A DNA stretch of 64,000 bases, from positions 1 to 64,000 of the forward strand of contig JAIQZU010000029.1 in assembly GCA_021776915.1 (NCBI GenBank), given 5' to 3'. Source of the stretch: Candidatus Scalindua sp. GTDB lineage: Bacteria; Planctomycetota; Brocadiia; Brocadiales; Scalinduaceae. This document shows, one piece after another, positions 1 through 12,058 of this stretch (the first letter of the stretch is position 1; the number at the start of each line of letters is the position of its first letter). The translations under genes and the position numbers were made by a program. A model generated the notes under the pieces. The model ran no database searches. It had not been told where the DNA came from and saw only the letters and a list, made by a program, of their open reading frames with translations.

Positions 1-1356
1 TTAAACGTTAACGGAAAGATTGCTGCAGATATCAATACAAGTGGCTCTATCGAAAAAGAATTAAAACTAAGCGGAACAACTATTTTACACGACATAAATG
101 CCGATGGAGGACCTCTTAAGAATAACAGGATATCCAATCTCAACCTTAAACTTATACACACATTAGATTATAAAATTACGGATGACTCTGTAAATATCGA
201 GCAAATGGATATCGTATCTGATTTCCTCGAAATGAAATCAAAAGGAGGAATAGCAAATCTAAGCAAGGAGAAGAATATTGATTACGAACTTTCCCTGAAT
301 ATGGACATGGATAGGACAACTGCTAAATTTGCAGGGATGCTTCCCTCGGACATTAACATGACAGGAAATGGCATCGTTGATCTAGGCATAAACGGTAAGC
401 TATTAGCAGAAGTACATGAGGATTTATATAAACAAATGAATTTCCATGGAAGTATATCCATAGACAACATTAAATATGATGCATACGAAATAAAAGATTT
501 TAAAACAAAGCTCAGCCTGGATGATGGTTTCTTTACAACAAAGGATTTCACTTTTATGCTAAATGAAGGCCCGGGCACCGTATCGGCAAGTGCAAACCTT
601 AAAGAGGAAAAACCTTCTTTAGCTTTTGATATGAAATTATCAGATATGCTTATTAATCAAAATATGGATTTACTTGCATATATAGTCCCTGTCCTTGCAG
701 CGCCGGATGGCAAGATATCAGGCAAACTAAGTACGATATTCAACGCAAAGGGCAATGGGCTGAACTGGCAGGATGATTTAAGTAAAAGCCTTAATGGTCA
801 GGGAGAAATTGATATTAAGGACGGCTACATAAATGGCGGCACGATAACATCCAAAATCCTCAAGACTTTTGGTAAGGGAGGAGAATACAAATTTGATAAT
901 ATCTCTACCAAGTTTGTAATTAACGATAGCAAAATATTTAACGATGATATCAGCATCAACGGCAAAGACTTTAACATTGGTTTATCAGGGTGGACTTCAT
1001 TCGACGGACGATTAGAATATTCTGCAGATGCGCAGGCAATAGGCAACCTTATAGGTGGAGATGTCAAGGAGGTCCTCGGGGGTATGAGCAAGGGATCAAA
1101 ATTACCAATAGTAGTCACGGGAACAATAGACAAACCAAGACTTGCATTTAAATGGCCAAAACCCCAGGAAATTGGTAATATCCTGCAAGGAATATTAGGA
1201 GGTTCAAAGGACTCTGAACAACAACCAGAACAACCATCCGAGAGCACAAGTGAACCGACGCAAACAGAGACTGTAGAAACAAAAGAAGAAACACAGCCGA
1301 AGAATGAGAAAATAGAAAAGGTTGTGGAAAAGCTCTTTAAAGATTTCTTTAAATAA
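1..1356 (+). CDS. AsmA-like / DUF748-type protein, C-terminal part (5' end outside window)
   Basis: The reading frame is open from base 1, so 451 residues of a longer protein are visible. The sequence is made of alternating hydrophilic and hydrophobic beta-rich stretches with repeated xGxxxLxG and GxISIxNI patterns, as in the C-terminal part of AsmA/TamB-like envelope proteins, which span the periplasm and help move or sort lipids to the outer membrane. The last 60 residues are a low-complexity tail rich in Glu, Gln, Pro, Thr and Lys. It precedes cvpA by about 75 bp. The family call rests on overall texture; the exact subfamily is unknown because the N-terminus is missing. Confidence 0.65.
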   Translation, partial: LNVNGKIAADINTSGSIEKELKLSGTTILHDINADGGPLKNNRISNLNLKLIHTLDYKITDDSVNIEQMDIVSDFLEMKSKGGIANLSKEKNIDYELSLNMDMDRTTAKFAGMLPSDINMTGNGIVDLGINGKLLAEVHEDLYKQMNFHGSISIDNIKYDAYEIKDFKTKLSLDDGFFTTKDFTFMLNEGPGTVSASANLKEEKPSLAFDMKLSDMLINQNMDLLAYIVPVLAAPDGKISGKLSTIFNAKGNGLNWQDDLSKSLNGQGEIDIKDGYINGGTITSKILKTFGKGGEYKFDNISTKFVINDSKIFNDDISINGKDFNIGLSGWTSFDGRLEYSADAQAIGNLIGGDVKEVLGGMSKGSKLPIVVTGTIDKPRLAFKWPKPQEIGNILQGILGGSKDSEQQPEQPSESTSEPTQTETVETKEETQPKNEKIEKVVEKLFKDFFK

Positions 1357-1430
1357 ATTATCGAGAAACCAAGGATAAATCAGCAATCGGCCTGACTCTC
1401 TCGTTCAGGCGGCAGGAAAGGAGCTAATTA

Positions 1431-1949
1431 ATGAACTGGCTCGAATTCACTCTAATAGGAGTTATAGCAACTGGAACTTTTTTGGGGATAATAACAGGCC
1501 CTCTCTGGCAAATTTACAGAATCTCTTCAGTTGCGCTATCAGCCGCTACCGCTTACTTACTCCGTAATCTAACAGGCAGCATATTAAGCGGCATATTCAG
1601 CCCTGAAATATCTGTTGCATTGGGTTTTGCAATTGTCTTCGGCGTTATCTTGATCACAACATATGCAATAGGCAACCTTTTCAGAAAATTTCTTATAAAA
1701 AGGAAATTCGGAATCAGCGGAAGGCTTATTGGCGGTTGTATTTCGTTTACAAAGACAATATTAACATGCTGGATAATTATAGCAGGAATTTCATTCTGGG
1801 GAAACGAGTGGACAGGGAAAGCAATTGGCAATTCCCTGGTCGCAAATAATATCGAAAAAGTAACAAAGAGATTTATTACCTGGATTCCACAGGATGTTAA
1901 AGAAATGTCAATAGTTGGGAAAAAGGACATTCAAGAAAAACAAAATTAA
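1431..1949 (+). CDS. CvpA family inner-membrane protein
   Basis: This 172-residue protein has four hydrophobic segments (about residues 5-25, 30-45, 60-85, 105-125), the layout of the CvpA (colicin V production) family. The motif GRLIGGCISFTKTIL near residues 96-110 matches the conserved Gly-rich part of the family. CvpA proteins are integral inner-membrane proteins linked to envelope homeostasis; the molecular role is unsettled. The start is well placed: a GGAAAGGAG ribosome site lies a few bases before the ATG. It sits 19 bp upstream of recA and may be co-transcribed with it. Confidence 0.8.
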   Translation: MNWLEFTLIGVIATGTFLGIITGPLWQIYRISSVALSAATAYLLRNLTGSILSGIFSPEISVALGFAIVFGVILITTYAIGNLFRKFLIKRKFGISGRLIGGCISFTKTILTCWIIIAGISFWGNEWTGKAIGNSLVANNIEKVTKRFITWIPQDVKEMSIVGKKDIQEKQN

Positions 1950-1968
1950 TTACTAATGGGAGTAATCA

Positions 1969-3009
1969 ATGACAAAGTTACAGAAACCGGAAAGCCCTGA
2001 AAAGGGGAAAAAAGTAGATGCAAGCAAAAAAGACCAGGCGCTGGACAGAGCAGTATCACAGATTGAAAGACAATTTGGCAAGGGCACGATAATGCGTCTC
2101 GGAACAGACGAGAAACTTGATGTACCGGTAATATCAACCGGTTCACTTTCTCTTGACCTCGCCCTCGGTGTAGGTGGAATGCCTCGCGGCAGGGTTGTAG
2201 AAGTCTTTGGACCTGAATCATCAGGAAAGACTACCCTGACACTTCATATCGTTGCCAACGCGCAAAAAAACGGTGGCACTGCCGCCTTTATCGATGTTGA
2301 GCATGCCCTTGACCCTGACTATGCAAAGAGGCTGGGGGTAAACCTTGACAGCTTACTTGTAAATCAACCGGATACAGGGGAACAGGCGCTGGAAATTGCC
2401 GAACTCTTAACGAGAAGCAACGCAATTGATGTAATTGTCGTAGACTCCGTTGCCGCACTCGTACCCAGAGCGGAACTTGAGGGGCAGATGGGCGACTCAC
2501 ATGTTGCATTGCAGGCCAGACTTATGTCACAGGCACTCAGAAAACTTACTTCCGTAATTTCCAAGTCAAAGACATGTCTCATTTTTATTAATCAGATACG
2601 CGAAAAAATAGGAGTGATGTTCGGTAATCCGGAAACAACACCAGGTGGCAGAGCATTAAAGTTCTATTCTTCTGTCAGAGTTGACATCCGTAGAATTGGC
2701 AGTATCAAGGATGGAGAACGTATTATCGGAAATAGAGTAAGAGCTAAAATTGCAAAGAATAAAGTTGCTGCGCCATTCAGGAAGGCGGAATTTGACATAA
2801 TGTTTAATCAAGGTATATCCAGGTCCGGCGATATTATTGATCTTGGTGTTGAAGAGCAGGTAATAGAAAAAAGCGGAACATGGTTCTCATATGGAGACAT
2901 ACGACTGGGACAGGGAAGAGAAAACAGCAAAAATTTTATCGACAGTAAGCCTGAGTTACTCAAAGAAATTGAACAGGCAATAACCACAAAGATGGCGGCA
3001 GACAAATGA
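1969..3009 (+). CDS. recA: Recombinase RecA
   Basis: RecA is the ATP-dependent strand-exchange protein of homologous recombination and the co-protease of the SOS response. The 346-residue length fits the family. Visible motifs are Walker A GPESSGKT (81-88), Walker B around [12 protein letters not shown] (about 153-164), the L2 loop with [15 protein letters not shown] and the DNA-binding region after it. The extra Lys-rich N-terminus (first 20 residues) is slightly longer than in Escherichia coli. A GGGAG site precedes the ATG. No LexA-type operator was identified upstream, so SOS control cannot be read from the sequence. Confidence 0.98.
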
Positions 3010-3015
3010 AACCCA

Positions 3016-3044
3016 TTGACTCATTGAGTAAAACAGAGTAGAAT
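3016..3044 (+). promoter_or_regulatory. Sigma-70-like promoter, possibly giving a leaderless mRNA
   Basis: TTGACT (3016-3021), a 17-base spacer and TAGAAT (3039-3044) form a near-consensus promoter just after recA. Transcription would start at about 3051, almost exactly at the GTG (3052) of the next gene, so the transcript may have no leader, or translation may begin at the ATG at 3088. Confidence 0.5.
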
Positions 3045-3051
3045 ATTTGCC

Positions 3052-3249
3052 GTGAAACATGGAGGCAGAAGAAAAGAACTTGGCAAGATGTTGATGGATA
3101 TAGCAAAGTATCTTGCCACTGTTGGGTTTGTTGGAAGCTTAATAACAGATCAACTAAACATTGCGGCTGGTATTAGTATTATAGTAACGGTAATTATTCT
3201 GGTTATTGTATCATTTTATACTATACCGCCAAAGTTAGGAGATGGATAA
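3052..3249 (+). CDS. Small two-helix membrane protein (unit 1, long member)
   Basis: This 65-residue protein has a short basic N-terminus with KELGKMLMDIAKYLATV followed by two hydrophobic segments (about 20-35 and 38-58) and ends PPKLGDG. I do not recognise a described function; similar small KELGK...DIxKY membrane proteins occur as hypotheticals. It begins with GTG; an in-frame ATG at 3088 would drop 12 residues. It is directly followed by a 34-residue membrane protein (1 bp gap), and the same pair of genes recurs, damaged, on the other side of ahbC at 4688-4994. The repeat of the pair argues that these tiny genes are real. Confidence 0.6.
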   Translation: MKHGGRRKELGKMLMDIAKYLATVGFVGSLITDQLNIAAGISIIVTVIILVIVSFYTIPPKLGDG

Positions 3250-3250
3250 A

Positions 3251-3355
3251 ATGTCCTTTTATATCATGATTGCTGGAGTAATTATTATTGCTTTGTTTGC
3301 TTTAATAATTTCGTACAGGGAAGACCATCCTAAAAAAAATATCACAAGAAATTAG
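3251..3355 (+). CDS. 34-residue single-span membrane protein (unit 1, short member)
   Basis: The ORF runs ATG to TAG and encodes 34 residues: a hydrophobic helix (FYIMIAGVIIIALFALII) followed by a short charged tail (SYREDHPKKN...). It starts 1 bp after the stop of the 65-residue membrane gene, so the two are probably translationally coupled. An ORF of exactly the same length and layout, with low sequence identity, lies at 4890-4994 after the second copy of the long member. No function is known; the matching length, topology and context are the evidence that it is a gene. Confidence 0.55.
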   Translation: MSFYIMIAGVIIIALFALIISYREDHPKKNITRN

Positions 3356-3391
3356 TGAGTATTTGAATTTGAAAAGGACATAAACATTAAG

Positions 3392-3411
3392 AATCATTAT
3401 TAGTAATGATT
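3392..3411. promoter_or_regulatory. Perfect 8-bp inverted repeat upstream of ahbC, possible operator
   Basis: AATCATTA (3392-3399), a 4-base loop TTAG and TAATGATT (3404-3411) form a perfect AT-only dyad 35 bp before the ahbC start. It has the size of a dimeric regulator site, but it does not match a site I can name, and AT-rich dyads arise by chance. Confidence 0.3.
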
Positions 3412-3446
3412 ACAATTCTGATAACATCAAAATATGAGGTGATAAG

Positions 3447-4655
3447 ATGATTGGTATTTCAAAGTTGTATTGCGGCACCGTTGAACCTTCTGATGCACTA
3501 AGGTATGGCAGGGATTCAAACAAACTGCCCTCACATCTTTTGCAATTTTCCAGCGATAAAAAGCCTGTAGTTGTATGGAACGTTGGACAGAGATGCAATC
3601 TTAAATGCGTACATTGCTACTCTCAGTCAAAAGATGTTGAATATCCGGGTGAACTAAATACAAAAGAGGCAAAGGCTATGCTTGACGGCCTCGCAGAATA
3701 CGGTGCACCGGTAATCCTCTTTTCAGGGGGCGAACCCCTGATGAGAGAGGATTTAATGGAACTGATAACATATGCCCGTGATAAAGGCTTGAGAGCAGTC
3801 ATAAGCACAAATGGAACTCTGATTACTGAAGAGAAAGCAGAAGAATTAAAAAAATTCGGGCTTTCGTATGTTGGGATAAGCCTTGACGGTTTAAGGGAAA
3901 CCAACGATAAATTCCGTGGTATTGAAGGAGCCTTTGACGATGCACTGCAGGGAATCAGGAATTGTCTGAAACTGGGAATAAAAGTAGGACTCCGTTTCAC
4001 TATTAATAAAAGAAATGCGCAGGACATCCCCGGAATATTTGAACTCATTGAAAAAGAAAAGATTCCAAGGGTTTGCTTCTACCACTTAGTCTATTCCGGA
4101 AGAGGCTCCAGATTGATGGAAGAAGATTTGTCACATGAAGAAACCCGTAAGGTTGTCGACCTGATTATAGACAAGACAAAAGAAGCACATGATCGCGGAA
4201 ACAAGATAGAGGTTCTGACGGTAGACAATCATGCCGATGGCCCATATATATATCAGAGATTGCTTAAGGAAGACCCAAAGAGAGCGGCTGAAGTACTTGA
4301 ACTGCTGAAGTGGAACGAAGGAAACAGCTCCGGACACGGACTTGCCTGTATAAGCTGGGATGGTGCCGTACATGCCGATCAATTCTGGAGAGAGCATACA
4401 TTCGGGAATGTACGTGAACGAAAATTCGGCGAAATATGGGAAGACAAATCAAACGATCTTCTAATGAAATTGAAAGACAAAGTACACCATGTCAAAGGCC
4501 GGTGTTCCAAGTGTAAGTGGCTTGATATATGCGGCGGAAACTTCAGGGCACGTGCAGAGGCATACTATGGTGATAAGTGGGAACCGGACCCGGCATGCTA
4601 CCTGACAGATGAGGAAATCGGCTTACTCGTAGACGAACCTCTGACAGTTAAATAA
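3447..4655 (+). CDS. ahbC: Radical SAM heme-biosynthesis enzyme AhbC (12,18-didecarboxysiroheme deacetylase)
   Basis: The protein has 402 residues. The opening MIGISKLYCGTVEPSDALRY is the hallmark of AhbC. The radical SAM cluster site is C50-NLK-C54-VH-C57 (CX3CX2C), followed by the SAM-binding GGEP. A Cys-rich C-terminus (CSKCKWLDICGGNFRARAE and a later DPACY) looks like a SPASM-type auxiliary cluster. AhbC removes acetate side chains from 12,18-didecarboxysiroheme to give Fe-coproporphyrin III in the siroheme-dependent heme route of anaerobes and archaea. A NirJ-like role in heme d1 synthesis is the main alternative. No ahbA, ahbB or ahbD gene is nearby. A GAGGTGATAAG ribosome site precedes the ATG. 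The many c-type heme motifs later in the window fit a high demand for heme. Confidence 0.82.
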   Translation: MIGISKLYCGTVEPSDALRYGRDSNKLPSHLLQFSSDKKPVVVWNVGQRCNLKCVHCYSQSKDVEYPGELNTKEAKAMLDGLAEYGAPVILFSGGEPLMREDLMELITYARDKGLRAVISTNGTLITEEKAEELKKFGLSYVGISLDGLRETNDKFRGIEGAFDDALQGIRNCLKLGIKVGLRFTINKRNAQDIPGIFELIEKEKIPRVCFYHLVYSGRGSRLMEEDLSHEETRKVVDLIIDKTKEAHDRGNKIEVLTVDNHADGPYIYQRLLKEDPKRAAEVLELLKWNEGNSSGHGLACISWDGAVHADQFWREHTFGNVRERKFGEIWEDKSNDLLMKLKDKVHHVKGRCSKCKWLDICGGNFRARAEAYYGDKWEPDPACYLTDEEIGLLVDEPLTVK

Positions 4656-4687
4656 GAGTTCACCGCAAAAACGCAGAGAATAAGAGT

Positions 4688-4972
4688 ATGAAATGGTTTG
4701 CAGATAAAGGCGCTAAAGAGAACGTATAAAAATACTCTTATGATATCTCTAAGATTATAGTTGGAACAGCCGTAATTGCTCCCTTCATAGGTGACGCATA
4801 CAAAGTCAAAACTGTGGTTCTCGGTTTTACAGTATCTATCATATTTTTTGTTTTAGGTTACCTTACTGATAAAATGGAGACATATACTTGTGAATACTTT
4901 AGAGTTTGCATACCTGATTCTTGGATGTTTAGGGTTAATTGGAATAATATTTATAGTTTTACACAATCGTAA
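4688..4972 (+). pseudogene. Second copy of the small membrane protein with an in-frame stop (unit 2, long member)
   Basis: From ATG 4688 the frame reads MKWFADKGAKENV, meets TAA at 4727-4729, and then continues with KYSYDISKIIVGTAVIAPFI and a second hydrophobic segment (TVVLGFTVSIIFFVLGYL) before DKMETYT. The part after the stop has the same layout as the 65-residue protein at 3052, including the KY..DI.K..V.TA signature. No good start codon lies between the stop and the first membrane span, so the gene looks broken. The frame stays open to 4972 and overlaps the 34-residue gene that begins at 4890; the true end of the domain is probably near 4890. A sequencing error at 4727 is possible. Confidence 0.5.
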
Positions 4973-4994
4973 AACTAAGCATTTGAAACATTAA
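4890..4994 (+). CDS. 34-residue single-span membrane protein (unit 2, short member)
   Basis: From GTG 4890 the frame encodes MNTLEFAYLILGCLGLIGII plus FIVLHNRKTKHLKH and a TAA stop. It matches the gene at 3251 in length (34 residues), in having one membrane helix, and in ending with a short basic tail. It overlaps the end of the damaged upstream gene in another frame. The start codon choice is inferred from the length match. No function is known. Confidence 0.45.
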   Translation: MNTLEFAYLILGCLGLIGIIFIVLHNRKTKHLKH

Positions 4995-4998
4995 TCAT

Positions 4999-6138
4999 TT
5001 AGCCCATCAGCATTTCCTGTACCCTGGAGACTCCCTTACCTAACTCTATCTTATAACCGTTTTCATGCAGAATCTTCTCAACGGCTGAGATTGCCAGAAC
5101 TATATCAAATTCGTTGACATAGCCCATATGCCCGATCCTGAACATCTTGCCTTTTAATTCATCCTGTCCGCCGGTTATCGTAACCCCGGTTTCATCCCTC
5201 AATTTTTTAATAGCTGAATCAATGTTTATTCCCTCCGGGGCTTTTACAGATGTCAGGACATTACTCGATGCATCACCTGCAAAAAGCTCAAGTCCCAGGG
5301 CCTTTATACCCTCTCTTGTTGCCTGTGCCAGCCTCGCATGCCTGGACCAGACATTTTCAATCCCCTCATCCCTGATCATAGACAAAGCCTTACCCGCCGC
5401 CATAATTAGAGAGATTGCGGGTGTATATGCCGTAGTCTTATTATTCAGCGCCTTTCGCATCTTCTTAAAACTCCAATAGTACTTTGGCAGATCAGACTTC
5501 TCAATTGATTCCCACGCACTCTGCGCAACACATACAAAGGCCAGTCCCGGAGGAAGCATACAGCCCTTCTGAGAACCTGTAACCGCAATGTCAATACCCC
5601 AGTCATCCATCATGAGCGGATGGACTCCAATTCCTGATATAGCGTCTACTACCAGTAATAAGCTATGGCCTTTGACAACCCTGGCTATACCCTCAATATC
5701 ATGGACCACACCGGTTGAAGTTTCGCTTAGTGTAACGAATACTGCTTTTACATCTTTTTCATTCTTTAATGCGTTGTCCAGTTGGTCAGGGTTAACAGCC
5801 TTTCCGTTTTCTACATCAACAGGCACCACGTTTACGCCAAAAGTTTCGCAAATTTGCGCCCATCTCTCGCCAAATTTACCACCTCTGACAACCACAGCTT
5901 TGTCACCATGAGACAGGGCGTTGGCCACACATGCCTCCATTCCGCCTGTACCGGAAGATGCAAACGTAAACACCTCTCCATCTTTGGTCTGAAAAATATA
6001 TTTTAAATTCTCAGACACATTTGCAAATATTTCTGAGAACTCGGAAGTTCTGTGATGAATCATCGGACTTGCTTCTGCCAGGACTACTTCCGGTGGTATC
6101 TGTGTGGGGCCCGGTGTAAATAAATAAGTCTTTTTCAT
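4999..6138 (-). CDS. Class V aminotransferase (alanine-glyoxylate / serine-pyruvate type)
   Basis: This 379-residue PLP enzyme starts with the family signature YLFTPGPTQIPPEV. Other motifs are SSGTGGMEA (61-69), the Asp in VVDAISGIG (about 163-171) and the Schiff-base lysine K191 in VTGSQKGCMLPPG. The family moves amino groups between small amino acids and glyoxylate or pyruvate; soluble hydrogenase small-subunit annotations also belong here. The gene stands alone on the minus strand and converges on the ahbC region. In many bacteria it neighbours serA, which is not seen here, so the substrate stays open. Confidence 0.85.
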   Translation of the reverse strand: MKKTYLFTPGPTQIPPEVVLAEASPMIHHRTSEFSEIFANVSENLKYIFQTKDGEVFTFASSGTGGMEACVANALSHGDKAVVVRGGKFGERWAQICETFGVNVVPVDVENGKAVNPDQLDNALKNEKDVKAVFVTLSETSTGVVHDIEGIARVVKGHSLLLVVDAISGIGVHPLMMDDWGIDIAVTGSQKGCMLPPGLAFVCVAQSAWESIEKSDLPKYYWSFKKMRKALNNKTTAYTPAISLIMAAGKALSMIRDEGIENVWSRHARLAQATREGIKALGLELFAGDASSNVLTSVKAPEGINIDSAIKKLRDETGVTITGGQDELKGKMFRIGHMGYVNEFDIVLAISAVEKILHENGYKIELGKGVSRVQEMLMG

Positions 6139-6309
6139 GTTTTTCCCTTACTATTAATCAAATTTTAATTTTTAAACAATTTAATAATAAATTCGCAGGG
6201 ATTTTAATACAAAAGGGGTCTATAATCAACTACTTTTAAATACTTGACTGAAAATGGAAAAACATTTAACCTAGCAAATATTAAGAAAAGTGGATTCGCT
6301 ACCCGCCTG

Positions 6310-6355
6310 CCTGCCCGTCAAATTTGTTCAGACGGGAAAGATATAGTCGGGCAGG
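6310..6355. repeat. GC-rich nested palindrome (CCTGCCCG family)
   Basis: CCTGCCCG (6310-6317) pairs with CGGGCAGG (6348-6355); a smaller dyad CCCGTC/GACGGG (6314-6319 and 6331-6336) is nested inside. The element stands out from AT-rich surroundings. The same words recur near 7412-7463, 8921-8932, 11283-11332, 40792-40806 and 58112-58162. Confidence 0.55.
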
Positions 6356-6360
6356 TCGCT

Positions 6361-6386
6361 TCCCCGGACAAAAGACACCGAGGACT
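6361..6386 (+). repeat. 25-bp dispersed repeat, copy 1 (TCCCCGGACAAAAG...)
   Basis: This copy differs from the 15730 copy by a few bases in the middle. The ends TCCCCGG and CCGAGGA can pair with one G-T, giving a small imperfect hairpin. It abuts the GC-rich palindrome at 6310. Other copies are at 15730, 17499 (reverse) and 48272. Confidence 0.6.
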
Positions 6387-6571
6387 TTAATCCACCCTAC
6401 AAGTTTTAAAAGTTAGAAAGTTTGTTTTACCACGCTCAGCGTGGTCTGCCAGAACTTTAGCTCACTTCAAACTTTAGGCACTTTAAACTTTTTCTGAGAT
6501 TAAAACATTACAATAATAATCCCGTCCGCTATGAGGCGGGAGGCTTTTACACATTTGCATCACAAATTATC
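6387..6571. other. Non-coding stretch with hairpins before trpC
   Basis: The stretch holds a dyad ACCACGCT/AGCGTGGT (6431-6447) and a GC-rich hairpin at 6522-6541 (CCCGTC pairing with GGCGGG, one wobble) shortly before trpC. No leader peptide or tryptophan-codon cluster typical of attenuation was found, and no gene is evident. Confidence 0.4.
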
Positions 6572-7348
6572 ATGATATTAGATAAAATCTATTTACACAA
6601 ACTTAAAGAGGTGGAAGAGTCTAAAAAGCTTGTCTCAATGGAATCTTTGAGAGAAAGATGTAAAGGTTCTCCACAAACAGGAAAATTCAGCAAGGCAATT
6701 AAGAAAGACAATGGAATTAAGTTTATTGCCGAGGTCAAAAAGGCGTCGCCTTCTGCAGGGATAATAAGAGAAGATTTTAATTATGTCAACATAGCGATGG
6801 AATATGAAGCAGGTGGCGCTTCTGCGATATCAGTTCTGACCGATAAAGAGTTTTTCATGGGAGATATAAGATATCTTTCCGAGATTAAGCAGTTAGTCAA
6901 CGTACCTGTCCTGAGAAAAGATTTTATAATCGACCCGTACCAGATATACGAGGCCAGGGCCGCCGGCGCTGATTCGATCTTACTGATTGCAAGGATTCTC
7001 GCAAGGGAACAGATTGACACATTTCTCGCTCTTGCCCACGAACTGGGGATGGAATGCCTGGTTGAGGTTCATGATAAAGACGAATTAGAGAAGGTAATGA
7101 AAACGGAAGCGGCAATTATCGGTATCAACAACAGAAACCTTGACACATTCGAGACTAATCTTGAGACCACATTTAACCTCCATCCCCTCATCCCGGAAGA
7201 AAAGATTATCGTAAGTGAAAGCGGAATCAAGACAAGGGCGGATATCCTGAAGCTTGAAGAAGCCGGCATTGATGCAATATTGATAGGTGAAACCTTAATG
7301 CGCAGTAAAGATATCTTTCTAAAGACAAAAGAATTATTCGGAAGTTAA
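6572..7348 (+). CDS. trpC: Indole-3-glycerol phosphate synthase TrpC
   Basis: TrpC closes the indole ring in tryptophan synthesis, converting CdRP to indole-3-glycerol phosphate. The 258-residue length is standard. The (beta/alpha)8-barrel motifs are present: FIAEVKKASPSAG (catalytic Lys, about residues 49-61), PVLRKDFIIDPYQI, LVEVHDKDEL, GINNRNL, VSESGI and AILIGETLM. No other trp gene is adjacent, so tryptophan synthesis genes are scattered in this genome. The start ATG at 6572 gives the usual N-terminus (MILDKIYLHKLKEV). No strong ribosome site is visible. Confidence 0.95.
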   Translation: MILDKIYLHKLKEVEESKKLVSMESLRERCKGSPQTGKFSKAIKKDNGIKFIAEVKKASPSAGIIREDFNYVNIAMEYEAGGASAISVLTDKEFFMGDIRYLSEIKQLVNVPVLRKDFIIDPYQIYEARAAGADSILLIARILAREQIDTFLALAHELGMECLVEVHDKDELEKVMKTEAAIIGINNRNLDTFETNLETTFNLHPLIPEEKIIVSESGIKTRADILKLEEAGIDAILIGETLMRSKDIFLKTKELFGS

Positions 7349-7609
7349 ATGAGAATGTTTAACCTGAAAAAATCCTGGAATCCTCACAAAAGTGAGGCAA
7401 CCTTGCTTTCACCCGCCTGAATGATTGTCCGCCCGGATAGGCCGTTCGGACGGGTCGGGCAGGCAAGGAATCCAATTTCTATCCTTTGTGGTATGGACAG
7501 ATTCGTTTGTCCCTTGAACTAAAATATACTTCACTTCTGTGAAATAGTATGCTTAAATATAACACTTCAAAATAATTGTTATAAATTCATAAATAAAGAG
7601 GATACTTCC
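7349..7609. repeat. Intergenic stretch with GC-rich palindrome
   Basis: GTCCG (7427-7431) and CGGAC (7447-7451) form the core of a GC-rich hairpin flanked by CCCGCCTG and CGGGCAGG, sharing words with the 6310 element. The rest is AT-rich leader of the next gene. No coding sequence was seen. Confidence 0.45.
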
Positions 7610-8548
7610 ATGAGAGAAAAAATTTTTTTGATTTCAACAATAATAGTTACATTCTTTTCATTCTGGCTGATATTTAACGATAATACAATGGGCATGAGAC
7701 AGGATGCCGATGCTGGATTACAATTGGACATAATCAGGGATGATCTTGCTACTTATTCAAAGATGAAACCGGAGGATGCAAGAGAATACTATGAAGAGGC
7801 GCTCAATGAACTCCATGCATTGATCGAAATGTTTGCAGGTACAGAAGAGGCGTTGAAAGCGAAGTTTTACATCGGAGCTACTTACAACCAATTAGGCAAT
7901 TTTGATGAAGCCATTAAATACTTTGATGATGTATTAAGCTTTCAGGATGAAATCAATCAGAATTTCAAGGCAAGGTTATTATATTTCAAGGCAAATGCCC
8001 TTTTAGGAAATGGCAAAGTACCGGAAGCGAAAGATGTTATTGCTGAATTAAGGAAAATCGAGCCCGGGGCAGCCAACGCCTTCGGCAAAGAACTGGGTGG
8101 TACTATGAGGGTCGGAATGAATGCCCCGGACTTTCATACCAAGGATTTCCAAGGAAACCCGGTAGATCTGTCACAATATGAAGGACAAATTATCATCATG
8201 AACTTTTGGGCAACATGGAATGATCAATGTATTCAGGAATTACAGGAAACAAAGAAGTTGTACAGAAAACTTAAAGGCCCTGATGTTCAATTCATTGGAG
8301 TCAGCCGTGATGATAACATTGATGATTTAAAAGGCTTTGTCAGGCAGCATAACATAGAATGGCCTCAAATATTTGAAGGAATGCGTCATAAAGGTATGAT
8401 GTCAAAATTGTATGATGTAAACAGAATACCCATAATATTCGTGCTGGATCAAGAAGGCAAGGTTCAGTATATCGGAAACCAAAAGGAAAAAATCACGCAA
8501 ATCGTTACAGCGCTGATTGTCAGAGCAGAAAAGAAATCTGGAGATTAA
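7610..8548 (+). CDS. TlpA/ResA-like thioredoxin-fold protein with N-terminal TPR region; CXXC reduced to a single Cys
   Basis: The 312-residue protein has an N-terminal hydrophobic anchor (residues 5-21), two to three TPR-like helices (about 55-150, including AKFYIGATYNQLGNFDEAIKYF) and a C-terminal thioredoxin fold starting at GMNAPDFHTKDFQG. The fold keeps the FWATW strand and a cis-Pro (NRIPIIFV). The redox motif, normally WCxxC, reads W203-N204-D-Q-C207, so the first, nucleophilic cysteine is missing. The protein probably sits outside the inner membrane. It may hold or sense a partner instead of acting as a dithiol reductant; a peroxiredoxin-like use of C207 is another option. The ATG follows GAGGATACTTCC. 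Confidence 0.75.
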   Translation: MREKIFLISTIIVTFFSFWLIFNDNTMGMRQDADAGLQLDIIRDDLATYSKMKPEDAREYYEEALNELHALIEMFAGTEEALKAKFYIGATYNQLGNFDEAIKYFDDVLSFQDEINQNFKARLLYFKANALLGNGKVPEAKDVIAELRKIEPGAANAFGKELGGTMRVGMNAPDFHTKDFQGNPVDLSQYEGQIIIMNFWATWNDQCIQELQETKKLYRKLKGPDVQFIGVSRDDNIDDLKGFVRQHNIEWPQIFEGMRHKGMMSKLYDVNRIPIIFVLDQEGKVQYIGNQKEKITQIVTALIVRAEKKSGD

Positions 8549-8579
8549 TCAAAAAAAGCCGTTATAGCATAGTACCGAG

Positions 8580-8885
8580 CTAAATATCTGAAACAGGTTT
8601 ATAACTCTGACTCACAAAAAGGTCGCAGCTGCATATGCCGTCTTTCTCTATTTCCTCCGCGTGGTATTCACACGGACAGATCATCTTTGCATCCATCTCT
8701 TTGTCGTCAGAAAGCATTCTGCACGGGCAATAAAAAAACCCGTTCTTTAATTTCCTCTTTGCCAGAGCCTTGATTATCTTGTCTACATGTTTCGAATCCG
8801 GATTCAGTTCGTATGGACTGGTTGCTGCATAGTCTTCGACTAATTTACGGGCATCTGTTTCTAACTGTACTATTCCATCATCCAA
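8580..8885 (-). CDS. ftrB: Ferredoxin:thioredoxin reductase catalytic (beta) subunit
   Basis: This 101-residue protein has the three Cys pairs of FTR beta: C53-P-C55, C70-P-C72 and C85-S-C87, which hold a [4Fe-4S] cluster next to a redox-active disulfide. The last pair is CSC where plant and cyanobacterial enzymes have CHC. The protein passes electrons from ferredoxin to thioredoxin. FtrB-like proteins without a variable alpha chain occur in many anaerobes, and no alpha gene is seen here. It lies just downstream of the TlpA-like gene on the opposite strand, which may be coincidence. Confidence 0.85.
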   Translation of the reverse strand: MDDGIVQLETDARKLVEDYAATSPYELNPDSKHVDKIIKALAKRKLKNGFFYCPCRMLSDDKEMDAKMICPCEYHAEEIEKDGICSCDLFVSQSYKPVSDI

Positions 8886-8996
8886 TCCAATTACCTCTTT
8901 AATAAGTTACTCTAAACCGGCAGGCAGGCGGAGACAACATGCTGGCAGTCTAGACATTTTGCTTAATCTATAGCAATCAACATTCATTACACAAAC

Positions 8997-11237
8997 ATGA
9001 CTAACCTCTCTTTCGAGAGGCCTGCCGTCATGCCAGAGAAAAAATTATATATTATGAAAAAGAATTTGCAAGGTAAAAGAGATTGGTTTATTCTTAAAAA
9101 TATGCTGATTGAAAATGTATTAGGAAAAAACGGAATAGTCGCAGATAAATTAGATTCTTACGAGCTTAGGCCCCAACAGTTGGATATGGCCCTGACGATT
9201 GAAAAGTCTATTGAAGAAAACAAGCATCTTATTATTGAAGCAGGAACCGGTGTAGGCAAAAGCATGGCATATCTGGTTCCGTTTATATTCTGGACTGTCA
9301 GAAACAAGAAAAAGGCTGTCATTTCAACGTATACCAAGACACTGCAGGAACAATTAATTAACAAAGACCTCCCCTTTCTTCGTAATGCATTAAGGTCTGT
9401 CAAAGATAATACCCGCCAGAAGGACTTGCCGCCTGGATCGGGACATAAACAGGAAGAAAAATTTGACTTCTCTTATACCCTTTGTGTTGGCGGGCAAAAC
9501 TATTTGTGCTTAAGAAGATTTAATCAGTTGCAAATGCACGGCCTCATTGACACAAAAAAAGAAGTCAAAGAACTTCAGAAGATCATCCAATGGGAAGGGC
9601 AGACAAAGAACGGCCTGAGATCAGAACTAGATTTTGAGCCGTCACAGGCAGTATGGAGTAAAGTATGCAGGGAATCCGATCTTTGCTTTGGAAAGAAGTG
9701 TATTTTCAATGACGATTGCCACTACTACAAGGCGCGAAGGAGAGAATATAAGGCCCATATCCTGGTTACAAACCATCATCTGTTTTTTGCAAATCTGGTA
9801 AATGAAGGCCGAGTCTTGCCGGATTTTGATGCAGTAGTCTTCGATGAAGCCCAGACACTGGAAGACGTCGCCACCAGTTACTTCGGTATAGCAATATCAA
9901 ACTTCAAGGTCAAATTCCTGCTAGATTCCATCCTGAACCCGAAAACCGGAAAGGGATTGATAACAAGGCTATTTAAACCGTCAGACAAGACTGTGGCTGC
10001 TATCCGGAAAACATTAGATGAGGGAAGGCGCGCCGGCGATCTTTTCTTCTCTGAGATTGCAGAAAAATTCGGTACAGACAGCAGAACCACCCGGATTCGA
10101 AAAAAGGGTGTCATTAACAACTATCTTAATAACCCCCTATCTAATCTTTCAGGAGCGCTGGAATCATTATTGAACCTGGTTAAGACAGAAGAGGAACGGT
10201 TGGAAATCTTCGCTTTTGCAAGCCGGTGTAATGAAATTAAAAAAAACATCTCTACCGTCATAAATCAGGATATGGAAGAGTATGTCTATTGGGCAGAAGT
10301 TGAGAAAAGAACAAACTCGCTCGGACTCTCAAACTATAAGTACGCAAGATGCTCCCTGTTTGCAGCGCCAATAAATATTGCTGATGATTTTGAGAAACAG
10401 ATATTTGATAAGATCAGGCCCGTAATCCTTACCTCCGCTACACTTTCAGTAAACGGAAATTTCAATTACATAAAGGAACGGTTGGGGATACCGGTCTGCA
10501 CACCTGCCGGAAATTTCCACCATGAAGAATTTGATTCCGGCATAACAAACGGTGGGGATTTTAGTGAAAAGATCATAGGGTCTCCATTTAACTTTTCAGA
10601 AAATGCGCTCATCTATGTTCCCGACAATATTCCGGACCCAAATCAGCAACCAGATGAATTCAAAAACAGTATAATAAAACACATAGAGGACATTATTTCT
10701 CACTCACAGGGAAGATCTTTTATACTCTTTACGAGTTTCAAGATGCTTAACAGCGTATACGAAGAGATCCAGGATGATCTGGACGAGTTTACCCTTTTCC
10801 GGCAGGGAGATAAACCAAGATATCAATTGATTGAGGAGTTTAAGGCCGCTCAAAAATCAGTTCTCTTTGGCACCGCTACATTCTGGCAGGGAGTTGATGT
10901 GCCCGGTGAAGCCCTGAAGTGTGTGATAATAACCAAACTACCCTTCGCAGTTCCCAGTGACCCGATAATCGAAGCAAGGATGGAACTGCTGAAAGCCCAA
11001 AACAAGAATCCATTTATGGATTACCAGGTACCACAGGCAATTACCCTGTTAAGGCAGGGGTTTGGCCGCCTTATCAGGACAGGCACTGACACGGGTATAG
11101 TCGCAATCCTGGATCCCCGCATCAAGAGCAAGTTTTACGGCAGACACTTCCTGAATTCACTTCCCGATTGCAAAAAAACCTCTGATATAAAAGTCATTAA
11201 AAACTTTCTCAATCTTGCTCATAACCATGTAGATTAA
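8997..11237 (+). CDS. DinG/XPD-family ATP-dependent DNA helicase
   Basis: Up to 746 residues. Motifs are the Q-motif region RPQQLDMA (59-66), Walker A EAGTGVGKS (81-89), a DEAH-type box as FDEAQ (about 281-285), TSATL for motif III, and GFGRLIRTG for motif VI near the C-terminus. Cysteines in CRESDLCFGKKC and NDDC (about 223-241) together with C.G.QNYLC upstream fit the [4Fe-4S] cluster of XPD/DinG helicases. Such enzymes unwind forked DNA and R-loops during repair. An internal ATG at 9102 (MLIENVLGKNG) may be the true start, as family members usually begin about 25 residues before the RPQQ motif. The last 71 bp of the gene are repeated at 11988. Confidence 0.85.
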   Translation: MTNLSFERPAVMPEKKLYIMKKNLQGKRDWFILKNMLIENVLGKNGIVADKLDSYELRPQQLDMALTIEKSIEENKHLIIEAGTGVGKSMAYLVPFIFWTVRNKKKAVISTYTKTLQEQLINKDLPFLRNALRSVKDNTRQKDLPPGSGHKQEEKFDFSYTLCVGGQNYLCLRRFNQLQMHGLIDTKKEVKELQKIIQWEGQTKNGLRSELDFEPSQAVWSKVCRESDLCFGKKCIFNDDCHYYKARRREYKAHILVTNHHLFFANLVNEGRVLPDFDAVVFDEAQTLEDVATSYFGIAISNFKVKFLLDSILNPKTGKGLITRLFKPSDKTVAAIRKTLDEGRRAGDLFFSEIAEKFGTDSRTTRIRKKGVINNYLNNPLSNLSGALESLLNLVKTEEERLEIFAFASRCNEIKKNISTVINQDMEEYVYWAEVEKRTNSLGLSNYKYARCSLFAAPINIADDFEKQIFDKIRPVILTSATLSVNGNFNYIKERLGIPVCTPAGNFHHEEFDSGITNGGDFSEKIIGSPFNFSENALIYVPDNIPDPNQQPDEFKNSIIKHIEDIISHSQGRSFILFTSFKMLNSVYEEIQDDLDEFTLFRQGDKPRYQLIEEFKAAQKSVLFGTATFWQGVDVPGEALKCVIITKLPFAVPSDPIIEARMELLKAQNKNPFMDYQVPQAITLLRQGFGRLIRTGTDTGIVAILDPRIKSKFYGRHFLNSLPDCKKTSDIKVIKNFLNLAHNHVD
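11167..11237 (+). repeat. 71-bp direct repeat, left copy (3' end of the DinG-like gene)
   Basis: The end of the helicase gene, encoding CKKTSDIKVIKNFLNLAHNHVD, is repeated at 11988-12058 with 67 of 71 bases identical by eye. The two copies bracket the toxin-antitoxin cassette, as expected for an insertion that duplicated or replaced the gene's 3' end. Confidence 0.85.
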
Positions 11238-11388
11238 AACACATACCTGATACCTTGTTTAGCGGAATGAGGTGGAGCCTTCCTGCCCCCGCCAGAATGC
11301 ACGTCGGGCTGGCAACTGACTGGTCAGACGGGTAATCTTCCATAGAACAGCACGTATAAAAAGTTGGCTTCATGGGTTGGTTAAGTGG

Positions 11389-11586
11389 TTATTTCAAATC
11401 TAAATCTTTAATAACCTTGCTCAAAGGAATACTTTCTTCATTCTTTGAGCTTTCTTTTGCTTCTCTTAAATCTTTTAAATCTTCATAGTTTTCTAACTCT
11501 TCTTTTATAGCAGTAAACTCCTCGTATGGTAATATTACAAATTCTTTTTTTCCATTTTTCTCAATTATCTGCGGATGAAGTGTCAT
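11389..11586 (-). CDS. Phd/YefM-type antitoxin
   Basis: This 65-residue protein opens MTLHPQIIEKNGKKEFVILP followed by YEEFTAIKEELENYEDL, the usual N-terminal DNA-binding fold and start of the toxin-wrapping helix of Phd/YefM antitoxins. The C-terminal half is charged and probably disordered without toxin. It starts 10 bp after the stop of the RelE-like gene, so the order is toxin first. An AGGAGATAATC ribosome site lies before the start. The pair is presumably autoregulated. Confidence 0.8.
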   Translation of the reverse strand: MTLHPQIIEKNGKKEFVILPYEEFTAIKEELENYEDLKDLREAKESSKNEESIPLSKVIKDLDLK

Positions 11587-11596
11587 GATTATCTCC

Positions 11597-11845
11597 TTAA
11601 CGATATACGTCTTTACGATGTTTTATTTTATAAATTACAATTTTATTAATTTCTATTTCAAATAGTATTCGCCAATCCCCAACCCTCAATCTGTATTCAG
11701 GAGTATGTTTTGTTAGTTTTTTTACCTCACCTTGTAAATCATTTTCCATTTCTGTAATTCTTGCAGCAATTTTCTTTGCATCTTCCTTTGAAATCTTTTT
11801 AAGATCTTTAATTGCTTTTGGTTTCAAGAACGTTTGGTATTTCAT
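11597..11845 (-). CDS. RelE/ParE-family toxin
   Basis: The 82-residue protein MKYQTFLKPKAIKDLKKISK... has the RelE fold signature: helix-rich N-terminus, then VKKLTKHTPEYRLRVGDWRILFEIE and IVIYKIKHRKDVYR. The Arg residues in YRLRVGDWR and the C-terminal HRKDVY match positions used for ribosome-dependent mRNA cleavage in RelE relatives; a gyrase-type (ParE) target is less likely. It is upstream of its antitoxin in one transcript. The cassette is flanked by 71-bp direct repeats of the helicase gene end. Confidence 0.85.
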   Translation of the reverse strand: MKYQTFLKPKAIKDLKKISKEDAKKIAARITEMENDLQGEVKKLTKHTPEYRLRVGDWRILFEIEINKIVIYKIKHRKDVYR

Positions 11846-11872
11846 TCTTTAATAAACAGCACGTGAATTATT

Positions 11873-12058
11873 GTGAAATCGATTTACATGCTAAAACAAT
11901 GTACATCAGTATTCAAGGTAAAAATGGGGATACATTTGTACATAGTCAGGGTAAGCCTAAACACATTCCTTACGGCATATAAATCATATTGTAAAAAAAC
12001 CTCTGATATAAAAGTCATTAAAAACTTTCTTGAACTTGCTCATAACCATGTAGATTAA
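11873..12058 (+). pseudogene. Remnant ORF ending in a duplicate of the DinG-like C-terminus
   Basis: A 61-codon frame whose last 22 codons repeat the end of the helicase gene (CKKTSDIKVIKNFLELAHNHVD). The first 39 residues match nothing recognisable and appear to be random sequence fused in frame. It is best read as the far copy of the gene end displaced by the cassette insertion, not as a working gene. Confidence 0.6.
11988..12058 (+). repeat. 71-bp direct repeat, right copy
   Basis: It matches 11167-11237 with four mismatches, three of them clustered (around 12030-12035). The distance between copies is 821 bp and the interval contains one divergent toxin-antitoxin pair and no integrase or transposase. 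Confidence 0.85.

What the first reader, a model, noticed from the sequence alone, without database searches (positions are those of the whole stretch)
3052..4994. Duplicated two-gene unit of tiny membrane proteins flanking ahbC
A 65-residue two-helix protein followed by a 34-residue single-helix protein occurs on both sides of ahbC. The two short members have exactly 34 codons each, and the second long member has an in-frame stop. Sequence identity is low, so the copies are old or diverged quickly, yet the layout is kept. Such small proteins are usually missed by gene callers and could be subunits or regulators of a membrane complex.
Basis: partly seen in the sequence, partly recalled or inferred. 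Interest (0 to 1): 0.6.

Follow-up and report, generated by a model that had tools for sequence, protein, structure and literature searches.

The report
Mobile pair of tiny membrane proteins
Two very small membrane-protein genes that travel as a couple, hop between distant bacteria and ride on phage satellites have landed on both sides of a heme-synthesis gene by chance; they look like a portable membrane toxin-and-partner or phage-exclusion unit, but that function is untested.

Summary
Both long proteins belong to Pfam DUF6722 (PF20482); the short partner matches no family tried. The pair is a real two-gene unit: in 59 relatives, 43 of 45 long hits are followed by the short gene. Both genes are under purifying selection (dN/dS 0.12, 0.16) and their distances correlate (Mantel r 0.715). 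It also occurs in Nitrospirota, Desulfobacterota, Nitrospinota, Elusimicrobia, Bacteroidota and Sulfurimonas. The link to ahbC is accidental: copy 1 is absent in 9 of 9 same-genus genomes examined, copy 2 decays in relatives, and the two copies (9/46 identical) are different subfamilies acquired separately. In related anammox bacteria many copies are opposite-strand cargo beside the integrase of 9-10 kb phage satellites. New: the long gene often starts right at its promoter (apparently leaderless; 27 of 63 loci vs 4 of 286 control ORFs), whereas the short gene has a Shine-Dalgarno site (48 of 53). In decaying copies the long gene breaks first. Best guess: a toxin-antidote-like or phage-exclusion membrane module; the anatomy is well supported, the function is not. 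No paper naming DUF6722 was found in the library searched.

The parts
3016..3044 (+). sigma70-like promoter TTGACT-N17-TAGAAT; its -10 box ends 7 nt before the GTG of long 1, so the transcript should start at about the start codon. The same promoter precedes ahbC in relatives without the pair
3052..3249 (+). long member 1, DUF6722 (PF20482), 65 aa, two predicted transmembrane helices
   Evidence: (32 bits, cut-off 27)
3238..3241 (+). GGAG, Shine-Dalgarno-like, of short member 1 (inside the end of long 1)
   Evidence: read directly; statistics over loci
3251..3355 (+). short member 1, 34 aa, one predicted transmembrane helix, basic tail
   Evidence: E 4.1e-8 with the short profile
3447..4655 (+). 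ahbC (TIGR04546), the old neighbour around which both pairs were inserted; not part of the unit
4690..4888 (+). long member 2, DUF6722 relic: TAA at 4729-4731 and the frame runs on to 4972
   Evidence: 36.7 bits
4876..4879 (+). GGAG, Shine-Dalgarno-like, of short member 2
   Evidence: read directly
4890..4994 (+). short member 2, 34 aa, open; orthologue after ahbC in G002 (91% identical)

Best explanation
It is a self-contained, horizontally mobile two-gene module of small inner-membrane proteins. Shown by sequence: the long gene (DUF6722, two helices) and the short gene (one helix, basic tail) are inherited together, selected as proteins, found across phyla, carried as cargo in satellite-like islands and present alone next to unrelated genes. 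Strongly indicated: at many loci the long gene is the first cistron of a (nearly) leaderless mRNA, its start codon lying 12-18 nt after the start of the -10 box, while the short gene has its own Shine-Dalgarno site and overlaps or abuts the end of the long gene. Inferred: long and short form one membrane complex in which the long protein is the harmful or blocking effector (a two-helix membrane-perturbing protein, in the manner of GhoT/OrtT or of a phage-exclusion protein) and the short protein, translated more readily, holds it in check or assembles it; when ribosome conditions change (stress, phage infection) translation shifts toward the leaderless long cistron. The pair would thus stabilise the satellite or stop competing phages. 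In this genome copy 1 landed exactly behind the ahbC promoter and may be active; copy 2 has lost its long protein.
For: Pairing: long E<=1e-10 45 hits, 43 with short; short E<=1e-5 54 hits, 48 with long within 400 nt. Stop-start spacing mostly -5 to +9. dN/dS 0.12/0.16; Mantel r 0.715, 0 of 5000 permutations as high, N=53. Leaderless geometry: 27 of 63 loci vs 4 of 286 control ORFs, Fisher 6.6e-19, and 27 of the 29 promoters found within 120 nt lie in that narrow bin; it recurs outside Brocadiales at L116, L124, L125, L129, L131, L136, L259; SD>=4 nt at 19/63 long and 48/53 short starts (first seen in 83). Satellites: integrase and Dam homologues beside 27 of 40 loci tested; G030 and G056 elements bounded by perfect 20- and 23-bp direct repeats about 10.5 and 8.7 kb apart, with integrase, primase and terminase small subunit; nearest phage-collection relatives of the integrase are mostly Streptococcus satellite phages. 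Decay asymmetry in 59 Brocadiales genomes: 16 loci with broken or missing long but readable short (one with altered tail), 0 the other way (0.65^16=0.001 by target size). In copy 2 the short gene shows 5 synonymous versus 3 non-synonymous changes against G002 although both longs are broken (Fisher 0.01).
Against: No toxicity, immunity, interaction or RNA data. Outside Brocadiales three readable longs lack an intact short (L252, L257, L264); with these the asymmetry is 16:3 and only p about 0.06. Genes beside solo copies show few known toxin-antitoxin or defence families (2 HicA, 2 Uma2, a few defence hits among 133 neighbours; no control set was scanned). No significant match to defence models (best E 0.012). 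36 of 63 loci do not show the strict leaderless geometry, and no transcription start was measured.
Confidence: 0.4

Rival explanations
1. A non-toxic heteromeric membrane complex that excludes superinfecting phages (blocks DNA entry), carried by satellites against competitors; both proteins needed, no antidote relation.
For: Position next to the integrase of satellites on the opposite strand, as in the P4 cargo hotspot next to int that carries antiviral systems (PMC9122126, passages); other small cargo occupies the same slot in some satellites without the pair.
Against: Solo copies are common outside satellites; no homologue found in the phage records and none confirmed in the viral contigs; the short gene is often kept without the long one.
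Confidence: 0.27
2. Small accessory subunits or regulators of a host membrane complex.
For: Small, membrane-bound, purifying selection.
Against: Sporadic: 17 of 392 sampled genomes of the phylum, all 17 in one order; 0 to 8 copies per genome; no constant neighbour; frequent decay.
Confidence: 0.1
3. A holin/antiholin-like lysis pair of satellites.
For: Sizes and topology (two helices plus one helix, overlapping genes) resemble holin pairs (recalled, not tested).
Against: Opposite strand to the other satellite genes, no endolysin recognised beside it, chromosomal solo copies in many phyla.
Confidence: 0.07
4. Type I-like toxin with an antisense RNA antitoxin; the short ORF is an auxiliary second peptide.
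For: Short hydrophobic proteins and strong promoters are usual for type I toxins (recalled).
Against: No Rfam family in window 1-12000; the short protein is conserved about as strongly as the long one. Antisense promoters were not systematically searched.
Confidence: 0.06

Closest known systems
Pfam PF20482 (DUF6722)
   Same: Both long members match over the curated cut-off.
   Different: The family has no stated function; nothing in the entry as returned mentions a partner gene, satellites or leaderless starts. No paper naming DUF6722 in the library searched.
GhoT / OrtT membrane toxins of E. coli (type V and orphan toxins)
   Same: Small (57 aa) inner-membrane proteins with two predicted transmembrane helices (PMC4344625, passages); a works-like comparison only.
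   Different: No sequence relation tested or claimed; the GhoS antitoxin is an RNase (recalled), not a one-helix membrane protein.
Phage-inducible chromosomal islands and P4-like satellites
   Same: The elements that carry the pair in Brocadiaceae have integrase, primase, small terminase subunit, direct-repeat ends, about 9-10 kb, accessory genes (PMC6092414 abstract and section 6).
   Different: Backbone includes a Dam-type methyltransferase; hosts are anammox bacteria; induction and packaging untested. The window's copies are not in such an element.
Cargo hotspot of P4-like satellites (Rousset 2022)
   Same: Variable accessory genes beside the integrase (PMC9122126, passages).
   Different: There the cargo named in the passages is mostly larger enzymes; here two tiny membrane proteins, divergent from int.

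Membership tests
DUF6722 (PF20482) | profile score over the gathering cut-off (27 bits) | tested here: met
   long 1 32 bits, long 2 36.1 bits with X at its stop; 31.7 and 36.7 bits on the genome
two-gene DUF6722 + short-TM unit (as defined here) | short one-helix ORF starts within about -20 to +30 nt of the long stop | tested here: met
   window copy 1 +4 by the script's count, copy 2 by inspection; 43 of 45 Brocadiales longs have a short hit within 400 nt, 41 of them within 30 nt of the end of the profile match
Toxin-antitoxin systems | one product toxic, the other neutralises it | not testable with these tools
   no experiment possible; only decay asymmetry
Toxin-antitoxin systems | small adjacent co-oriented genes, mobile, sporadic | tested here: met
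Known anti-phage defence systems (PADLOC) | profile match | tested here: not met
   best E-value 0.012 over 10 proteins
PICI/P4-like phage satellite (for the carrier elements) | integrase, replication gene, small terminase subunit, direct-repeat ends, 8-15 kb, no capsid genes recognised | tested here: met
   two elements, G030 and G056; several ORFs remain unassigned
PICI/P4-like phage satellite (for the carrier elements) | induction by and packaging in a helper phage | not testable with these tools
   none
PICI/P4-like phage satellite (for the window copies) | integrase or Dam within the window | tested here: not met
   no hit in the 64-kb window; the satellite integrase is absent from the genome at E<=1e-30
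leaderless mRNA genes | transcription start at or within a few nt of the start codon | tested here: inconclusive
   promoter position fits; no RNA 5' ends available

The most novel reading that the evidence does not exclude
A new class of membrane-only toxin-antidote (or phage-exclusion) module in which the effector is encoded by a leaderless first cistron and the antidote by a Shine-Dalgarno-led overlapping second cistron, so that the mode of ribosome initiation itself is the switch; the promoter-abutting start makes the roughly 300-bp unit portable between phyla with different translation signals, and phage satellites of anammox bacteria are one of its carriers.
Probability: 0.22. Interest if true: 0.85.

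Novelty: new variant of a known kind. Interest (0 to 1): 0.55.

Why it matters
It gives DUF6722, a family without a function, a constant partner, a carrier (phage satellites in anammox bacteria), an apparently unusual expression design (leaderless effector, SD-led partner) and a direct test (express long, short and both). A search of the held library for 'anammox' with 'phage satellite' found no paper. If the switch idea holds, it would link translation initiation mode to a membrane effector. It is also a caution: small genes flanking a conserved gene need not be related to it.

Tried and rejected
Duplication of one unit around ahbC: rejected (9/46 identity; different nearest relatives). Constant link to ahbC: rejected. 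Integron-type gene cassettes: considered for the array in L132 (4 pairs within about 3.2 kb); the repeats between its members look like C-terminal fragments of a secreted protein rather than attachment sites; no integron integrase was searched for. Phage origin: tblastn of two longs against 50,697 phage records gave nothing and three scans of the viral contigs confirmed no relative; plasmids also nothing. Defence-island hypothesis for solo copies: neighbours of solo loci (133 of the 138 collected; five were left out of the alignment) show no dominant family, and defence/TA hits are few; the far-gene control list was not scanned, so this is a description, not an enrichment test. Structured RNA: none in window 1-12000. 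Rows dropped: L073 and L074 judged not to be members; W2 excluded from the paired statistics because its long frame is broken; some dN/dS values undefined by saturation or zero synonymous change. The dN/dS locus pairs and the control ORFs were chosen by me, and the control ORF starts were taken mechanically as the first ATG, so the control rate may be underestimated. Fold searches were not run: a two-helix hairpin matches too many folds.

Full report
What is there. The coordinates and all stated details hold. Upstream of ahbC lie a 65-aa two-helix ORF (3052-3249, GTG) and a 34-aa one-helix ORF (3251-3355). Downstream lies a second long frame opening at ATG 4690, with TAA at 4729-4731 and an open frame that then runs on to 4972, and a second 34-aa ORF (4890-4994). 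The middle gene is ahbC (TIGR04546, 731 bits). Both long frames hit PF20482, DUF6722, above its cut-off. The short proteins match no Pfam or NCBIfam family at or above a curated cut-off; three window proteins and seven from related loci scored no better than E 0.012 in PADLOC.

A real two-gene unit. In 59 related genomes, 45 places match the long profile at E<=1e-10 and 43 of them have a short-profile hit downstream within 400 nt; 54 places match the short profile at E<=1e-5 and 48 have a long upstream. One of the two exceptions (G017) has a different 45-aa one-helix ORF in that place. In the first table of 62 loci, 58 had a short ORF at the end of the long one; the other four were two non-members, one broken long and window copy 2, whose short is offset by the lost stop. 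Pooled over 16 locus pairs, dN/dS is 0.12 (long) and 0.16 (short), and long and short distances correlate at r=0.715 with 0 of 5000 permutations as high (53 loci). These pairs were picked by me as close relatives and some shorts are saturated. The short tail is basic in 52 of 53 and holds histidine in 49 of 53.

Spread. A single pattern scan of species genomes found 32 loci in Brocadiales, Nitrospirota, Desulfobacterota, Nitrospinota, Elusimicrobia, Bacteroidota, Sulfurimonas and others (record titles; most are metagenome bins, so binning errors are possible). Most readable longs among them have the short partner. The 16 genomes so reached hold 1-8 copies each at E<=1e-5. In the window's phylum 17 of 392 sampled genomes have the long protein, all 17 in the window's own order (only up to 16 candidates per genome were scored). 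The order is Brocadiales: contigs of G037 and G019 have the lengths of Candidatus Brocadia pituitae and Candidatus Anammoxibacter records. The family of the window genome itself is not named by any search; a Scalindua-like anammox bacterium is my guess.

Why both sides of ahbC. The order recA-ahbC-aminotransferase is old. In 9 of 9 other same-genus genomes with both genes readable the recA-ahbC gap holds no pair (89-95 nt in eight, 204 nt in one, against 440 nt here, counted the same way with the recA stop). After ahbC, of 10 genomes examined, 4 have ahbC directly before the aminotransferase (gaps about 79-85 nt), 2 have a clear copy-2 relic (G002 broken long and readable short; G005 long gone and short with a stop), 1 a weak 11-residue trace (G006), and 3 show no pair in the fetched flank. 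G001 carries a copy-2-like pair (L052) elsewhere, with nucleotidyltransferase-like genes around it (my reading). Copy 1 and copy 2 share 9 of 46 aligned residues. Copy 1 is closest to L256 (unclassified bacterium Yes70-31; long 38/61, short 20/29) and L259 (Nitrospirota), copy 2 to L052 (31/39; 25/34). DNA similarity between copy 1 and L256 covers only the coding unit, window 3053-3338. So two different members of one mobile family arrived separately.

Carriers. Of 40 loci first fetched, 27 have both a tyrosine integrase and a Dam-type methyltransferase homologue nearby. In the loci read in detail the pair lies between them, on the opposite strand. Two elements were delimited: G030 (20-bp perfect repeat, about 10.5 kb, next to a tRNA-Glu gene) and G056 (23-bp perfect repeat, about 8.7 kb). 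They encode integrase, methyltransferase, small terminase subunit and primase, plus an ERCC4 nuclease in G030; I saw no capsid or tail gene among the proteins scanned (several ORFs unassigned; for G056 the integrase and methyltransferase are by homology to G030). The best-covered relatives of the integrase among phage records are mostly Streptococcus satellite phages. This is the anatomy of PICI/P4-like satellites (PMC6092414, abstract and section 6). In 15 integrase loci without a complete pair, the same slot is empty or holds other small genes, such as coiled-coil proteins (L222, L223, L225) or a two-gene cassette with a pepsin-like member (L233) (these names are my reading of the sequence). 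Satellite integrases of this kind, about 45% identical or more, were not found in the window's family.

An unexpected design. In 27 of 63 loci a sigma70-like promoter with at most two mismatches places the start of its -10 box 11-19 nt before the long start codon, against 4 of 286 control ORFs from the same loci; 27 of the 29 such promoters found within 120 nt lie in that bin. That predicts a transcript starting at, or up to about 6 nt before, the start codon. The short gene instead has a Shine-Dalgarno match of at least 4 nt in 48 of 53 loci, against 19 of 63 for the long gene and 175 of 286 controls. The geometry recurs outside Brocadiales (L116, L124, L125, L129, L131, L136, L259). In the window, copy 1 sits exactly behind TTGACT-N17-TAGAAT (3016-3044), a promoter that relatives have before ahbC without the pair. 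These are promoter predictions, not mapped starts.

Decay. In the 59 genomes, 16 places have a broken or missing long but a readable short (one of the 16 with an altered tail; one rests on a single-base run that could be a sequencing error), and none has a readable long with a broken or missing short, G017's divergent partner aside. By target size alone the chance of 16:0 is about 0.001. Extra short genes also follow some pairs in tandem (L037, L044, L046, L062, L063, L204, L205). But outside Brocadiales three readable longs lack an intact short (L252, L257, L264), which weakens the sum to 16:3, p about 0.06. The asymmetry is suggestive, not proof, of an antidote role for the short protein.

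What it does. Most likely a membrane module with an effector and a partner, of use to mobile elements: 0.40 for an effector/antidote or blocking unit as stated, 0.27 for pure phage exclusion. Against a host-complex subunit stand sporadic presence, decay and the lack of a constant neighbour. Pfam and PADLOC scans of 133 neighbours of solo copies gave no dominant family, so context beyond the satellites gives no functional hint. The two-helix toxins GhoT/OrtT (PMC4344625, passages) are the nearest working analogy; no homology is claimed.

Novelty. The long family is known by name only; no paper with the word DUF6722 is in the library. No paper holds both 'anammox' and 'phage satellite', and the four that hold 'leaderless' and 'anammox' use each word once or twice (listing only). 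The library lacks most subscription papers and all preprints, so absence there is weak evidence.

Noticed in passing
L213:497-10991 (G030), L215:1463-10177 (G056): Integrated 9-10 kb phage-satellite-like elements with exact 20/23-bp direct repeats in anammox genomes; several copies per genome (G030 has four integrase hits at E<=1e-110), some decayed.
   Followed up: partly
L132:2340-5682: Array of four DUF6722-type pairs with other small genes in a Bacteroidia metagenome bin; repeated fragments (2340-2439, 3847-3910, 4749-4848) resembling the C-terminal end of a secreted protein lie between them.
   Followed up: partly
L205:4895-5377 (G040:C1:498394-498876): One long gene followed by three short genes in tandem.
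   Followed up: no
L222, L223, L225, L062 and L051 (downstream of the pair): Coiled-coil proteins (MSVYEQVKQALQDVV... and similar) occupy or neighbour the satellite cargo slot and also lie near a solo pair.
   Followed up: no
window 3392-3411: Perfect 8-bp inverted repeat with 4-nt loop 37 nt after short gene 1, inside the stretch absent from relatives; could be a terminator or a trace of insertion.
   Followed up: no
window 4656-4685: ttcaccgcaaaaacgcagag-type intergenic sequence after ahbC, seen in similar form after ahbC of G003; G002 has a longer repeat-like insert there.
   Followed up: no
G000:C72:92020-94342 and G000:C23:1368-3700: Two further tandem pairs of ahbC-like radical SAM genes (44-48% identical to the window's ahbC) in the same genome.
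   Followed up: no
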